Shown here: positions 57,052-61,014 of the stretch, in pieces | Position numbering within the stretch: the first letter of the stretch is position 1 | Layout: each line of letters opens with the position of its first letter | Source of the DNA: Bradyrhizobium sp. CCGB01 | GTDB lineage: Bacteria > Pseudomonadota > Alphaproteobacteria > Rhizobiales > Xanthobacteraceae | DNA length: 64,000 nucleotides | Reading direction: 5' to 3' | Assembly: GCF_024199795.1 (NCBI RefSeq) | Contig: NZ_JANADK010000001.1 | Coordinates: forward strand, 9,104,001-9,168,000 | Made by a program: the position numbers and the translations under genes | Notes under the pieces: generated by a model | Databases searched by the model: none | Told to the model about the DNA's origin: nothing | The model's input: only the letters and a program-made list of their open reading frames with translations

Positions 57052-57822
57052 CTATACCGACAGAAACAATGCGAACGATTCCTCCACCGTGCGGCGCAGA
57101 TGCCTTGCATACAACGCGTGGTTGGGATCGTCGGGACCGACCCGTCCCAGCGACGGCTTCGGGACATTGCGGAGCGGCACATAGGCGATCGGCGCCGCGA
57201 TCGGCGTCAATTGCGAGCCGGGGCCGGCGCGGAGCGTCGAGATGATGCCGTACATCTCGCCGGCAACCGTCGGCCGCGACACCGTGATCACGCGATGCTG
57301 GCCGTGCTTGATGATGACGAGGTAGATGAAGCCGGACTGATGCGGCACCGCCACCTCGCCGGTGTGCTCATAGGCGGCATCGGTCCGCTCGCCCTCGCGG
57401 AACACCAGTGAAGACACCTTCGGCTCCCAGACGATCTCGGTGCGATAGGCGAAGATCGCATCCTTGTCGCCGAAGGATGGCCGCAGCGTGATGTAGACGT
57501 CCTCGAGCCAGGTCACCGCGCGATGCGCATAAGAGCCGAGGCTGTCGGGCGCGACATCGTTTGCGGCCGGGGGCGCCACCACGATGACGCTTTTGCGCAA
57601 GGATACGCCGAGGGCCTGCTCCAGCCGCACGGTCGTTGCCAGCGTGAACGGCCGCCGGCCGCCGAGCACCTTCTCCAGCGTGGACAGGCTGAGCTTGGCC
57701 TGCTCGGCCAGCGCCTGCCGGGAAATCCGTCGCCTGGCGAGCTCCTCGCGGATGGTCTCCGCGATCTCGCGGCTCTGCTCGTCCGAAAGCTGTCTATCGG
57801 TGATTTTATCCTGCATCTGCAT
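57052..57822 (-). CDS. XRE-type helix-turn-helix regulator with C-terminal domain
   Basis: The 256-residue protein has an N-terminal helix-turn-helix (ISRQALAEQAKLSLSTLEKV) and a roughly 165-residue C-terminal part (residues about 90-256) that I do not recognise, rich in beta structure (AIFAYRTEIVWEPKVSSLVF, SGFIYLVIIKHGQHRVITVS). It may sense a ligand. ATG at 57822 follows AGGGTTG. The gene is divergent from the sorted vWA protein gene and precedes a glycosyltransferase gene on its own strand, so it may control this surface module. Confidence 0.88.
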   Translation of the reverse strand: MQMQDKITDRQLSDEQSREIAETIREELARRRISRQALAEQAKLSLSTLEKVLGGRRPFTLATTVRLEQALGVSLRKSVIVVAPPAANDVAPDSLGSYAHRAVTWLEDVYITLRPSFGDKDAIFAYRTEIVWEPKVSSLVFREGERTDAAYEHTGEVAVPHQSGFIYLVIIKHGQHRVITVSRPTVAGEMYGIISTLRAGPGSQLTPIAAPIAYVPLRNVPKPSLGRVGPDDPNHALYARHLRRTVEESFALFLSV

Positions 57823-57959
57823 CGTCAACCCTGCCTTGCGAGAGCCAGTCTAGCAGGGCGGACAAACCAGCACAAAACCGCACTTGGCCGTTCCGGCCGC
57901 GGCTGCCGGGGCCGGCTGCGGCGGAACATTGCCGATCATTCTGCTCGCGAATTCAGGCC

Positions 57960-58008: not shown

Positions 58009-60270
58009 ATGGATACCTACGACACGGCCGACAGTGACGAACACCCCATGCTGGGGCGGCTGATCACGATCGGACTATTTCTTCTGGTGCAGGGCATCGC
58101 AGTGATGCTGGTCGCCTTCGTGGCCCTGCTGGTGAGTTTTGAGCCGGGATGGTCGGCGACGGCGGAGCAGGCCAGCCTGCTCCAGCCCGGCGATGCCAGA
58201 TCCGGCACCCTTCTGCTGAAGGAGGACGGCGCTTATGCCGAAGCGATCCGCCTCGGCATCGACGTCGACATCACGGTATCCGGTCCGACGCTGCGCGCCC
58301 GCGTCACCCAGATCTTCCGCAATCCGACCAAGGACTGGGTCGAGGCGACCTATGTCTATCCGCTTCCCACCGGCGGCGCCGTCGATACGCTGAAGATGGT
58401 GGTCGGCGACCGCGTCATCGTCGGCGACATCAAGGAGCGGCAGCAGGCCCGCCTGGTCTACGAGCAGGCGCGCCGTACCGGCCAGAAGGCCGCGCTCACC
58501 GAACAGGAGCGGCCGAACATCTTCACCAACTCGGTCGCCAATATCGGCCCAGGCGAAACCGTGCTGGTGCAGATCGAATACCAGGAGCCGGTGCATCAAT
58601 CCGGCAATGAATATTCGCTGCGCCTGCCGCTCGTGGTCGGACCGCGCTACAATCCGGCGCCGATCGTACAGAGCGTCGACTTCCGCAACGACGGCTCGGG
58701 CTGGGGCGCGACGAATTCGGATCCGGTGCCTGACCGCGACCGCATCTCGCCGCCGGTGCTGGATCCCGCGAAGAACGCGCCGGTCAATCCGACCAGCATC
58801 ACGGTGCGTTTGAAAGCCGGCTTCGCGCTCGGCGAGGTCAAGAGCCACCACCATAACGTCAAGGTCGAGAGCCCGGACAATGCGACGCGGATCGTCACGC
58901 TCGCTGAGGGCACTGTACCCGCCGACCGCGATTTCGAGCTGACCTGGAAGCCCGCCGCGGAGAAGGCGCCGTCGGTCGGCCTGTTCCGTGAGCGTGTCGG
59001 CGATGCCGATTATCTGCTCGCCTTCGTCACCCCGCCCAGCGCCGAGCAGGCGACGCAAAAGCCGCTGCCGCGCGAGGTCGTGTTCGTGATCGACAATTCC
59101 GGCTCGATGGGCGGCACGTCGATCGTGCAGGCCAAGGCCAGCCTGCTTTACGCCCTTGGGCGCCTTCAGCCGAACGACCGCTTCAACGTGATCCGGTTCG
59201 ACGACACCATGGATGTGTTGTTCCCGACCGCCGTACAGGCTGATGCAGCGCATGTCAGGGACGCAACCTCGTTCGTCGACGCGTTGCAGGCGCGCGGCGG
59301 CACCGAGATGGTGCCGGCGATGCGGGCGGCGCTGACGGACAAGCTCGGCGACACCGGCATGGTCCGCCAGGTGGTATTCCTGACCGACGGTGCGATCGGC
59401 AACGAGCAGCAATTGTTCGAAACGATCACGGCGATGCGGGGGCGCTCGCGCGTCTTCATGGTCGGCATCGGATCCGCGCCCAACACCTATCTGATGACGC
59501 GCGCCGCCGAACTCGGCCGCGGTGCCTTCACCCATATCGGCTCCGTCGAGCAGGTCGAGGAGCGCATGCGCGGCCTGTTCGCCAAACTGGAGAACCCGGC
59601 AGTGACCGGCCTCAGTGCGAAGTTCTCTGACGCGAAGGCCGACGTCACGCCGGCGATCGTTCCCGACATCTATCGCGACGAGCCGCTGGTGCTGGCGGCA
59701 AAGCTCGACAAGCTCGCGGGTTCGCTCGAGATCAAGGGACGCGTCGGCGATCGCCCGTGGTCGGTGACGCTGCCGCTACAAAACGCCGCCGAAGGCAAGG
59801 GCCTGTCAAAACTCTGGGCACAGCGCAAGATCGGCGACGCAGAGGTCGCCCGCACCCTGCGCGAGATGACACCCGACGCATCCGACAAAGCGATCCTGGC
59901 ACTGGCGCTCGACCATCAGATCGTCACGCGGCTGACCAGCCTCGTCGCGGTTGACAAGACGCCGAGCCGCCCCGAGGGCGAGCCGCTCAAGCTCAGCGAG
60001 CTGCCGCTCAACCTGCCGGCCGGCTGGGATTTCGCGAAGGTCTTTGGCGAACGGCCGCAGGTGCCGGCGCAACTCCGCGAACGTCATGCCGACGCGCGCA
60101 ACCAGCCGGCAGTGCGACGGCCGACACCTGCCGCCCCCGATGCCGTTCGCCTGCCCAAGACTGCAACCTCGGCCGAGCTGAAGATGATCGCTGGCCTCGT
60201 CCTGATCGTGCTCGCCCTGATCCTGTTCGTGTTCAACCGGCGTCAGTCCTTGCTCACTGACGCTGCTTGA
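58009..60270 (+). CDS. VIT and vWA domain protein with LPxTxTS sorting signal
   Basis: The 753-residue protein has an N-terminal membrane helix (about 15-44), a VIT domain (about 60-190, with IFRNPTKDWVEATYVYPLP), and a vWA domain with the metal site DNSGSMGG from Asp362. The C-terminus reads LPKTATS (715-721), a hydrophobic helix and FNRRQ, which is a complete sortase sorting signal. This is the layout of proteobacterial sortase target proteins. The cognate sortase gene follows. ATG 58009 follows GGGAG; the open frame upstream to 57523 is antisense to the regulator. It would be anchored in the cell envelope by the sortase. Confidence 0.93.
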   Translation: MDTYDTADSDEHPMLGRLITIGLFLLVQGIAVMLVAFVALLVSFEPGWSATAEQASLLQPGDARSGTLLLKEDGAYAEAIRLGIDVDITVSGPTLRARVTQIFRNPTKDWVEATYVYPLPTGGAVDTLKMVVGDRVIVGDIKERQQARLVYEQARRTGQKAALTEQERPNIFTNSVANIGPGETVLVQIEYQEPVHQSGNEYSLRLPLVVGPRYNPAPIVQSVDFRNDGSGWGATNSDPVPDRDRISPPVLDPAKNAPVNPTSITVRLKAGFALGEVKSHHHNVKVESPDNATRIVTLAEGTVPADRDFELTWKPAAEKAPSVGLFRERVGDADYLLAFVTPPSAEQATQKPLPREVVFVIDNSGSMGGTSIVQAKASLLYALGRLQPNDRFNVIRFDDTMDVLFPTAVQADAAHVRDATSFVDALQARGGTEMVPAMRAALTDKLGDTGMVRQVVFLTDGAIGNEQQLFETITAMRGRSRVFMVGIGSAPNTYLMTRAAELGRGAFTHIGSVEQVEERMRGLFAKLENPAVTGLSAKFSDAKADVTPAIVPDIYRDEPLVLAAKLDKLAGSLEIKGRVGDRPWSVTLPLQNAAEGKGLSKLWAQRKIGDAEVARTLREMTPDASDKAILALALDHQIVTRLTSLVAVDKTPSRPEGEPLKLSELPLNLPAGWDFAKVFGERPQVPAQLRERHADARNQPAVRRPTPAAPDAVRLPKTATSAELKMIAGLVLIVLALILFVFNRRQSLLTDAA

Positions 60271-60298
60271 GAGAGGAGCCCCCCGAACTCCTCTGTTA

Positions 60299-60347
60299 GC
60301 GCGCGCGGTCGCCCGTCCCACACCAACGGCCGCGCGCGCCTTTTTCT
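60299..60347 (+). terminator. Rho-independent terminator between target and sortase genes
   Basis: GCGCGCGCGG (60299-60308) pairs with CCGCGCGCGC (60330-60339) around a 21-base loop, followed by CTTTTTCTTCTT. It begins 28 bases after the vWA gene stop and would reduce read-through into the sortase gene. Confidence 0.75.
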
Positions 60348-60352
60348 TCTTC

Positions 60353-60432
60353 CGTCATTGCGAGCGCAGCGAAGCAATCCAGACTGCCTCCGGGGAAAGA
60401 ATCTGGATTGCTTCGCTTCGCTCGCAATGACG
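60353..60432. repeat. Palindromic intergenic repeat (CGTCATTGCGAGCGCAGCGAAGCAATCCAG type)
   Basis: CGTCATTGCGAGCGCAGCGA and AAGCAATCCAGA pair with TCTGGATTGCTTCGCTTCGC and CTCGCAATGACG, nearly a full-length hairpin of 80 bases. This type is widespread in Alphaproteobacteria as I recall. It ends 12 bases before the sortase ATG. Only copy of its kind in the window. Confidence 0.85.
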
Positions 60433-60444
60433 ATTGTGGATACA

Positions 60445-61014
60445 ATGCCCCGCTTCATCTCTCCCCTGGCGCTCGCGCTGATCGGCACCATCCTGTTCGG
60501 CGACGGCGCGTACATCCACGCCAAGGCATGGCTCGCACAGGTGCTGCTGGAGCGCGCGTTCGACAGGAGCGTTGCGACCGGCACGATGGTCAAGCCATGG
60601 TCTTGGGCCGACACCTGGCCGGTCGCACGGATCGAGGTGAAGCGGATCGGCGCCAGCGCCATCGTGCTGGAAGGCACCAGCGGTCAGGCACTTGCCTTCG
60701 GACCCGGCCATATCCACCAAACGGTTGATGCCGGCGAGCGCGGCATTGCGGTATATGCTGCACATCGCGACACACATTTCCGTTTCCTGCGGAATGTTGC
60801 CATTGGTGACGTAATCGATGTCACACGCAGTGACGGCAAACACTTCCGCTATCGCACGGATTCTTCCGCGGTCGTTCGTTTCGATGCATCGGGCATCGAT
60901 CCCGCAACGCAGGACTTCGAGCTCGTGCTCGCGACCTGCTGGCCGTTCGACGCCGTCACCTCGGGCCCCGAACGCTACACCCTGCATGCCACCTTGATCA
61001 AAGCCGATGAATAG
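60445..61014 (+). CDS. Proteobacterial sortase (class GN type)
   Basis: The 189-residue protein has an N-terminal membrane helix and a sortase domain with the catalytic triad His107 in YAAHRDTHF, Cys165 in LATCWPFDA and Arg177 in GPERYTLHA. Sortases cut LPxTG-like signals and join the protein to an envelope amine. In Gram-negative bacteria this class typically has a single dedicated target, here the preceding gene product ending in LPKTATS. ATG 60445 is preceded by GTGGATACA, a weak site; ATG 60427 lies within the repeat. A terminator and repeat separate it from the target gene. Confidence 0.93.
   Translation: MPRFISPLALALIGTILFGDGAYIHAKAWLAQVLLERAFDRSVATGTMVKPWSWADTWPVARIEVKRIGASAIVLEGTSGQALAFGPGHIHQTVDAGERGIAVYAAHRDTHFRFLRNVAIGDVIDVTRSDGKHFRYRTDSSAVVRFDASGIDPATQDFELVLATCWPFDAVTSGPERYTLHATLIKADE

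What the first reader, a model, noticed from the sequence alone, without database searches (positions are those of the whole stretch)
58009..61014. A dedicated sortase with its single target in a Gram-negative bacterium
The vWA protein ends LPKTATS plus a membrane helix and FNRRQ, and the next gene encodes a small sortase with His107, Cys165 and Arg177. Sortases are best known from Gram-positive bacteria. Proteobacterial class GN sortases with one vWA target have been described, but their biology is hardly known. Here the sensor kinase, response regulator and OmpA-like genes often found with the marine versions are not in the window; an XRE regulator and two glycosyltransferases are nearby instead.
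Basis: partly seen in the sequence, partly recalled or inferred. Interest (0 to 1): 0.7.

Follow-up and report, generated by a model that had tools for sequence, protein, structure and literature searches.

The report
Bradyrhizobium sortase, its target, its regulator
A soil bacterium carries an enzyme that probably fastens one particular surface protein into its envelope; this pair was already known, but a third gene and a three-repeat DNA switch beside it look like a control circuit for which I found no description.

Summary
At 58009-60270 lies a VIT-vWA protein ending LPKTATS, helix, FNRRQ; at 60445-61014 a sortase with His107, Cys165, Arg177. Both pass NCBI's curated cut-offs for class GN sortase (TIGR03784) and its target (TIGR03788), and the genome search found one of each. 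The pair is a member of a known dedicated sortase system, already recorded in this genus.

What I add: (1) Sortase and signal travel together: of 146 Bradyrhizobium genomes 123 have both genes, 17 neither. VIT-vWA relatives in genomes without this sortase lack LPxTA (0 of 21 tails); half carry PEP-CTERM, several beside a dedicated exosortase (XrtT, XrtQ). That this protein family bears different sorting signals was published in 2011. (2) The XRE gene at 57052-57822 is a conserved, mostly divergent third gene of one alphaproteobacterial branch; some other loci have a two-component pair instead. (3) Between it and the target lie three 10-bp direct repeats (57860-57889); in 146 genomes, 126 of 131 matches to this pattern are at this locus. 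I read this as an XRE-controlled variant of the dedicated sortase system. DNA binding, regulation and the acceptor of the target are untested.

The parts
57052..57822 (-). XRE-family regulator: helix-turn-helix (residues ~21-76) plus a conserved C-terminal part of about 160 aa without a Pfam match; divergent from the target
   Evidence: PF13560 27.1 bits against cut-off 27; conserved beside the target and genome-wide; alignment of 29 sequences, 49-95% identity to the window's
57860..57889 (.). Predicted operator: three 10-bp direct repeats GGACAAACCA GCACAAAACC GCACTTGGCC, with 37 bases to the XRE ATG and 119 bases to the target ATG
58009..60270 (+). Sortase target: N-terminal hydrophobic export signal (read by eye), VIT domain, vWA domain, C-terminal sorting signal
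58258..58581 (+). VIT domain (residues 84-191)
   Evidence: PF08487 113.7 bits
59074..59526 (+). vWA domain (residues 356-506), with a DNSGS motif
   Evidence: PF13768 73.4 bits; motif read in the sequence, its role as a metal site recalled
60151..60267 (+). Sorting signal: LPKTATS, hydrophobic helix, FNRRQ tail (residues 715-753); cleavage expected after Thr718
   Evidence: of 60 DNA matches to an LPxTAT pattern in the genome, the one with a strongly hydrophobic (3.37) C-terminal tail at the end of a long frame
60353..60432 (.). 80-bp palindromic insert between target and sortase; a polymorphic small repeat, not taken as part of the mechanism; explains the doubtful TTG start at 60358
   Evidence: 85% self-complement; found in the gap of 28 of 78 named loci; -59.1 kcal/mol, z -9.4
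60445..61014 (+). Class GN sortase, 189 aa, N-terminal hydrophobic stretch (read by eye), catalytic H107 (60763-60765), C165 (60937-60939), R177 (60973-60975)

Best explanation
This is an XRE-controlled branch of the proteobacterial dedicated sortase system. The VIT-vWA protein is exported and held in the inner membrane by its C-terminal helix, with LPKTATS facing the periplasm. The class GN sortase cuts between Thr718 and Ala719, holds the protein as a thioester on Cys165, and passes it to an amine, most likely on peptidoglycan or a lipid of the envelope, so that the VIT-vWA part is fixed by its C-terminus. The divergent XRE protein binds the three 10-bp repeats, controls its own gene, and probably that of the target. 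Shown here by sequence: membership of both families, near-invariance of the catalytic residues, coupling of sortase and signal, conservation of the XRE gene and of the repeats. Inferred: export route, cleavage site, acyl transfer, acceptor, DNA binding and the direction of regulation.
For: Family scores over curated cut-offs. Joint presence or absence in the same 146 genomes, lists compared by hand: 123 both, 17 neither, 2 target only, 4 sortase only; the six exceptions are a contig edge, incomplete genomes or gene fragments. In the order set 57 of 58 sortase genomes have the target; in the phylum set 37 of 37. Strict LPxTA[TS] in 152 of 179 C-termini with a sortase gene in the locus; in 0 of 21 from genomes where no class GN sortase was found. 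Two genomes of one genus without the sortase, whose targets nest inside the GN group, keep the helix but lack the motif (G390, G407). XRE beside the pair in 27 of 52 GN loci, which fall in one 30-row group of the target tree with SH-aLRT 99. Repeats: 41 period-10 pairs in 26 of 31 non-redundant intergenic regions, none at 9, 11 or 13, shuffles mean 0.9, maximum 5. Second set: with XRE 12 of 16, without XRE 0 of 14 and 0 of 11. Single-locus position. Where XRE lies downstream of the sortase (G260), repeats are found upstream of XRE.
Against: No acceptor gene is conserved beside the pair in this branch. In 25 of 52 GN loci no XRE relative was found, and none of the 25 loci of this kind tested has the repeats, so the regulator is not needed for the enzyme. 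The repeats lie nearer the XRE start than the target start and could serve XRE alone; in G083 they persist with XRE although most of the target is gone and no sortase was found. G146 has the XRE relative, but no target, sortase or nearby repeats were found; G142 has the target without a repeat match; L216 and L217 have XRE without clear repeats. XRE lies downstream of the pair in G260 and G411 and about 8 kb away in G315. The repeat motif was chosen after seeing the sequences. No structure was obtained.
Confidence: 0.75

Rival explanations
1. The sortase acts mainly as a releasing protease: it cuts LPKT/A and water resolves the thioester, so the target is freed into the periplasm or medium rather than anchored.
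For: No acceptor is known or conserved at the locus; members of the same VIT-vWA family carry GlyGly-CTERM, paired with a rhomboid-type protease (PMC3237569, passages), so release may be the shared outcome.
Against: Relatives also sit beside exosortases, which have been proposed to be transpeptidases (PMC1569441, passages); PdsO, the OmpA-like partner in some other loci (TIGR03789 262 against 152.2 in L194), hints at peptidoglycan, an inference.
Confidence: 0.25
2. The XRE protein is a neighbour that regulates only itself; the sortase pair is expressed independently of it.
For: The repeats lie 37 bases from the XRE start and 119 from the target start and stay with XRE when the other genes are lost or when XRE lies downstream.
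Against: XRE and target stay neighbours, mostly divergent, across one whole group of the target tree, with named records labelled with three orders; 25 of 27 genomes with a strong XRE match have the sortase; a histidine kinase and response regulator were found in 8 of 25 GN loci without XRE and in 0 of 27 with it.
Confidence: 0.25
3. The sortase builds a polymer of the VIT-vWA protein, as class C sortases do with pilins.
For: One enzyme with one substrate would allow it.
Against: Class C score 25.3 against a cut-off of 160; no second LPxTAT-tailed protein found.
Confidence: 0.04
4. The pair is a relic under decay in this genome.
For: Broken or cut copies exist in several relatives (G009, G078, G081, G010, G112, G129, G123, G099).
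Against: Both frames, the catalytic residues and the signal are intact in the window; 124 of 146 genomes have the sortase and 119 of 146 the target over cut-off.
Confidence: 0.03

Closest known systems
Proteobacterial dedicated (class GN, 'marine') sortase system: TIGR03784 sortase, TIGR03788 target, PdsS TIGR03785, PdsR TIGR03787, PdsO TIGR03789
   Same: Sortase and target are equivalog-level members in adjacent genes
   Different: No PdsS, PdsR or PdsO relatives found in the window; a divergent XRE gene and a three-repeat operator are there instead. PdsS and PdsO were confirmed by model in one locus of another branch, L194
Exosortase T / exosortase Q with a VIT-vWA protein
   Same: Homologous cargo and a sorting enzyme in a neighbouring gene; PEP-CTERM-like motif, helix and basic tail in 11 of the cargo tails seen
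   Different: Enzyme of an unrelated membrane family, PEP instead of LPxTA; response regulator and kinase best matching CreB/CreC, under cut-off, at the one XrtT locus scanned; separate groups of the cargo tree
Vault/ITIH-like family with GlyGly-CTERM, PEP-CTERM or LPXTG tails (Haft and Varghese 2011, PMC3237569; passages read)
   Same: That paper already shows this protein family bearing three kinds of sorting signal, the LPXTG ones next to TIGR03784
   Different: The passages I read do not mention an XRE regulator, the repeats, XrtT or XrtQ; I did not read the whole paper
Class D and E sortases
   Same: Pfam sortase family and, for class D, an LPxTATN-type signal model; second-best matches (80.5 and 41.5 bits)
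   Different: Far under their cut-offs (140-165 and 160)

Membership tests
Class GN sortase (TIGR03784) | Score over the curated equivalog cut-off | tested here: met
   200.6 against 158.25 bits
Class GN sortase (TIGR03784) | Catalytic His, Cys, Arg | tested here: met
   H107, C165, R177; invariant in 22 of 22 aligned; 183, 182 and 180 of 184 rows
Class GN sortase (TIGR03784) | N-terminal membrane anchor | tested here: inconclusive
   Hydrophobic stretch read in the sequence; no topology program run
Class GN sortase (TIGR03784) | Transpeptidase activity on the target | not testable with these tools
   Needs protein chemistry
Dedicated sortase target (TIGR03788) | Score over the curated equivalog cut-off, VIT and vWA domains | tested here: met
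   810.6 against 551.65; PF08487, PF13768
Dedicated sortase target (TIGR03788) | LPxTA-type motif, helix, basic tail at the C-terminus | tested here: met
   LPKTATS, hydropathy 3.37 over 16 residues, FNRRQ
Dedicated system: one enzyme, one target | No second sortase and no second target in the genome | tested here: met
   within their limits: motif spellings other than LPxTAT, such as LPxTG, were not scanned
PdsS/PdsR/PdsO-type dedicated system | PdsS, PdsR and PdsO genes at the locus | tested here: not met
   No match at E 1e-3 among window ORFs of 80 aa or more; whole genome not tested
Class D sortase (NF033746, NF058671) | Score over the cut-off | tested here: not met
   76.6 against 165 and 80.5 against 140
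Class C (pilin) sortase | Score over the cut-off | tested here: not met
   25.3 against 160

The most novel reading that the evidence does not exclude
The locus is a self-contained envelope-sensing circuit: the XRE protein's uncharacterised C-terminal part reads a signal from the envelope or from unanchored VIT-vWA protein and sets expression of the target and its own gene through the three helically phased repeats, while the sortase fixes the target by its C-terminus to an amine of the Gram-negative envelope. Sortase, exosortase T and exosortase Q would then be interchangeable ways of making the same C-terminally fixed VIT-vWA product, much as animal ITIH heavy chains are transferred by their C-terminus to chondroitin sulphate (that parallel is recalled, not tested).
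Probability: 0.2. Interest if true: 0.7.

Novelty: new variant of a known kind. Interest (0 to 1): 0.45.

Why it matters
What sortases do in bacteria with an outer membrane is an open question; one paper says their role in Gram-negative organisms remains unknown and that they are limited to halotolerant proteobacteria (PMC10581121, passages), a limit that the wide presence in Bradyrhizobium does not bear out. Bradyrhizobium offers a single enzyme and a single substrate, so acceptor and phenotype can be sought without redundancy. The predicted regulator and operator give a direct handle on when the system is switched on. A lineage without the sortase that lacks the motif while keeping the helix (G390, G407) is natural evidence that the motif is read by this enzyme.

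Tried and rejected
Glycosyltransferases as partners: rejected, 3 of 10 Bradyrhizobium loci and no others in that comparison. RNA families and tRNAs in the window: no matches. TTG start at 60358: rejected, since that stretch is a palindromic insert. A swap of sorting enzymes as a new idea: rejected as new, because PMC3237569 shows it. Recent signal swapping inside the tree: not supported; XrtT and XrtQ cargo form groups of their own apart from GN cargo (quick method, SH-aLRT only, several long branches). GlyGly-like tails: neighbours not tested for a rhombosortase. CreBCD link of exosortase loci: CreB-like 218 against 273 and CreC-like 73 against 356 in L137, CreD 457 against 275 in L184; not pursued. 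Literature: ten searches. No paper held two of the terms exosortase, XrtT and XrtQ; the search for sortase, XRE, regulator, alphaproteobacteria and von Willebrand listed two papers whose titles are unrelated. I read passages only, no whole paper; the rest are listings. Pallen 2001 and Comfort and Clubb 2004 were seen only as citations; what they say of Bradyrhizobium is recalled. Structure prediction: no result.
Full report
What is there. The window is a 64-kb stretch of a 9.32-Mb single-contig genome whose nearest listed relatives by sortase and XRE protein are Bradyrhizobium. At 58009-60270 a 753-aa protein has a VIT domain, a vWA domain and the C-terminus LPKTATS-helix-FNRRQ. After a 174-base gap with a palindromic insert comes a 189-aa sortase with H107, C165 and R177, best read from ATG 60445. 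Both pass curated equivalog cut-offs: TIGR03788 810.6 against 551.65, TIGR03784 200.6 against 158.25.

One enzyme, one target. PF04203 finds one sortase in the genome, TIGR03788 one target over cut-off and one weak match. A pattern for LPxTAT gave 60 DNA matches. All 60 surroundings were read (30 as loci, 30). In 45 the frame begins with Leu. The target has a tail hydropathy of 3.37 and ends 39 residues from the motif; the next highest are 2.32 in a frame that runs on past the stretch and 1.98 in a frame with only 28 open codons before the motif. Motifs spelled otherwise, such as LPxTG, were not scanned.

Coupling of enzyme and signal. In the same 146 Bradyrhizobium genomes the sortase is found in 127 at E 1e-3 (124 over cut-off) and the target in 125 at E 1e-30 (119 over cut-off). 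Comparing the printed lists by hand: both 123, neither 17, target only 2 (G042, G136), sortase only 4 (G093, G097, G140, G143; G143 by elimination, since one search leaves one genome unlisted). The exceptions are a contig edge, incomplete genomes or fragments. In 297 genomes of the order, 58 have the sortase at E 1e-15 (57 over cut-off) and 57 of these have the target at E 1e-60; the odd one, G223, scores 82.5 bits. In 398 genomes of the phylum, 37 have it (33 over cut-off) and all 37 have the target. Among 179 distinct C-termini with a sortase gene in the fetched locus, 152 fit LPxTA[TS] and 177 a looser pattern. Twenty-three have none in the locus: one (G355) fits the motif and its genome has the sortase on another contig; one (L191) is a second VIT-vWA protein of G570, a genome that has the sortase, and does not fit; the other 21 come from genomes where no class GN sortase was found, and 0 of 21 fit. 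These counts leave out L003, the broken or rearranged copies L010 and L152-L155, and rows whose match ended before residue 640. The catalytic residues are kept in 183 (His), 182 (Cys, two gaps) and 180 (Arg, three gaps, one Lys) of 184 distinct rows.

What replaces it elsewhere. Fifteen genomes of the order set have a VIT-vWA relative at E 1e-60 but no class GN sortase. Eight of these 15 have a PF09721 exosortase, and in all eight one lies within about 1.2 kb of the target; a ninth, G271, has an exosortase-like frame at the edge of its contig that one search did not report. Of 22 GN-sortase genomes one has an exosortase (G129, on another contig than the pair), and of three genomes with neither gene, none. 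Three of the neighbouring enzymes were scanned and are exosortase T (603-687 bits against 250). In two phylum loci, L184 and L187, the enzyme is exosortase Q (397 and 335 against 270); L185 and L186 have similar frames. A PEP motif was seen in 11 of the 22 tails without LPxTA; the tail of the XrtT locus L141 showed none. In G390 and G407, of one genus, the cargo nests within the GN group of the tree, no sortase was found, the helix remains and the motif is absent. That this protein family bears different sorting signals, including LPXTG next to TIGR03784, was shown in 2011 (PMC3237569, passages). I claim only the wider sample and the loss case.

A third gene. The XRE gene at 57052-57822 is not a chance neighbour. 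Among 52 fetched loci with sortase and target a relative lies beside the pair in all 11 Bradyrhizobium loci and in 16 of 41 others. In the 80 named loci it is found in 74; five of the six misses are at contig ends and the sixth (L353) lacks most of the target. That set is the 80 best of 580 and biased towards near relatives; it includes records labelled Caulobacterales and Rhodospirillales. In 80 genomes chosen by hand, strong matches (over 200 bits) occur in 25 of 56 with the sortase and 2 of 24 without. In three of the 25 it is not upstream: downstream in G260 and G411, about 8 kb off in G315. In the target tree the XRE loci fall in one 30-row group with SH-aLRT 99 and no XRE-less locus falls in it (two loci are in it twice, and L156 was not itself checked for XRE), which fits a single gain. 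A histidine kinase and response regulator were found in 8 of the 25 GN loci without XRE, in two of them at the locus edge, and in 0 of 27 with it; in L194 the kinase is PdsS (1031 bits against 612) and PdsO is present (262 against 152). The other 17 loci showed neither. Where sources name the XRE protein among the best 120 hits, the names are generic.

A repeat operator. The region between XRE and target holds three 10-bp direct repeats, at 57860-57889 in the window. In 31 non-redundant intergenic regions out of 74, pairs of [GCT]ACA spaced by exactly 10 bp number 41 in 26 regions; spacings 9, 11 and 13 give none, 12 gives 1 and 8 gives 7. Three hundred shuffles average 0.9 with a maximum of 5. 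The motif was picked after looking at the sequences. Twenty-six of the 31 have three or more units in phase by the weak rule NAC. In a second set 12 of 16 XRE loci have such pairs within 600 bp upstream of the target's aligned start; two more (L214, L221) have weaker repeats just upstream of XRE; for L216 and L217 none were seen there. Controls: 0 of 14 GN loci without XRE, 0 of 11 GN loci from elsewhere in the phylum, 1 of 11 exosortase loci. A Bradyrhizobium-derived pattern with up to one mismatch gives 131 matches in 125 of 146 genomes, against 3 for the reversed pattern. Of these, 123 lie 359-413 bp upstream of the target match, three lie at loci where target and sortase have decayed (G083, G140, G143), and five lie elsewhere, each with one mismatch. 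Of 125 target genomes, 122 have it; of the others, G091 starts at the edge of its contig, G016 shows only the later part of the target, and G142 has an intact target and no match. The pattern was drawn from these genomes, so the weight is on its single position per genome and on the other families. In G083, XRE and repeats survive with only the first part of the target, which suggests that the repeats belong to XRE and include self-control.

Reading. Known kind: the proteobacterial dedicated sortase system. Variant: control by a dedicated XRE protein and a helically phased triple repeat, where some other branches have PdsS/PdsR. The chemistry (cut after Thr718, thioester on Cys165, transfer to an amine) follows from sortases in general and is inferred. 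The acceptor is unknown; peptidoglycan is favoured because the partner PdsO in some other loci is OmpA-like, but release by hydrolysis is not excluded. No structural model could be made: the sortase job was interrupted and the XRE job was never accepted.

Already known: a 2023 paper names Bradyrhizobium japonicum among Gram-negative bacteria with a sortase, which it calls SrtA (PMC10004702, passage), and NCBI names many Bradyrhizobium proteins 'class GN sortase'.

Noticed in passing
window 60353-60432: 80-bp near-perfect palindrome (-59 kcal/mol, z -9.4) between target and sortase; in the gap of 28 of 78 named loci, where gaps with it run 119-217 bases. It might affect expression of the sortase.
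   Followed up: partly
G009, G078, G081 and L345 (target genes): The target frame is broken in the linker between VIT and vWA in four genomes while the sortase is intact; in G009 the XRE gene is also in two frames. Decay or sequencing errors.
   Followed up: partly
G099: L152 and L155: The target is split just before its sorting signal: XRE plus residues 1-681 on one contig, the last ~55 residues plus sortase on another; rearrangement or assembly break.
   Followed up: partly
G129 (L153) and G123 (L154): Target frame disturbed shortly before or within the sorting signal, sortase intact.
   Followed up: no
L137 and L184: Exosortase T locus with genes best matching CreB and CreC (below cut-off); exosortase Q locus with CreD (457 against 275) and a peptidoglycan transglycosylase-like gene (142.5 against 182.65): a possible link of VIT-vWA systems to the Cre envelope response.
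   Followed up: partly
L139, L143, L146, L149, L190: More distant VIT-vWA proteins with glycine-rich, GlyGly-CTERM-like tails; a gene that looks TetR-like by eye is nearby in four of them. Not tested for a rhombosortase.
   Followed up: no
L381 and L317: Records titled Bacillus subtilis SK6B4 and Frankia sp. RB7 carry XRE-target-sortase loci whose target tails and scores match Pseudochrobactrum and Bradyrhizobium ones; probably mislabelled or contaminated records.
   Followed up: no
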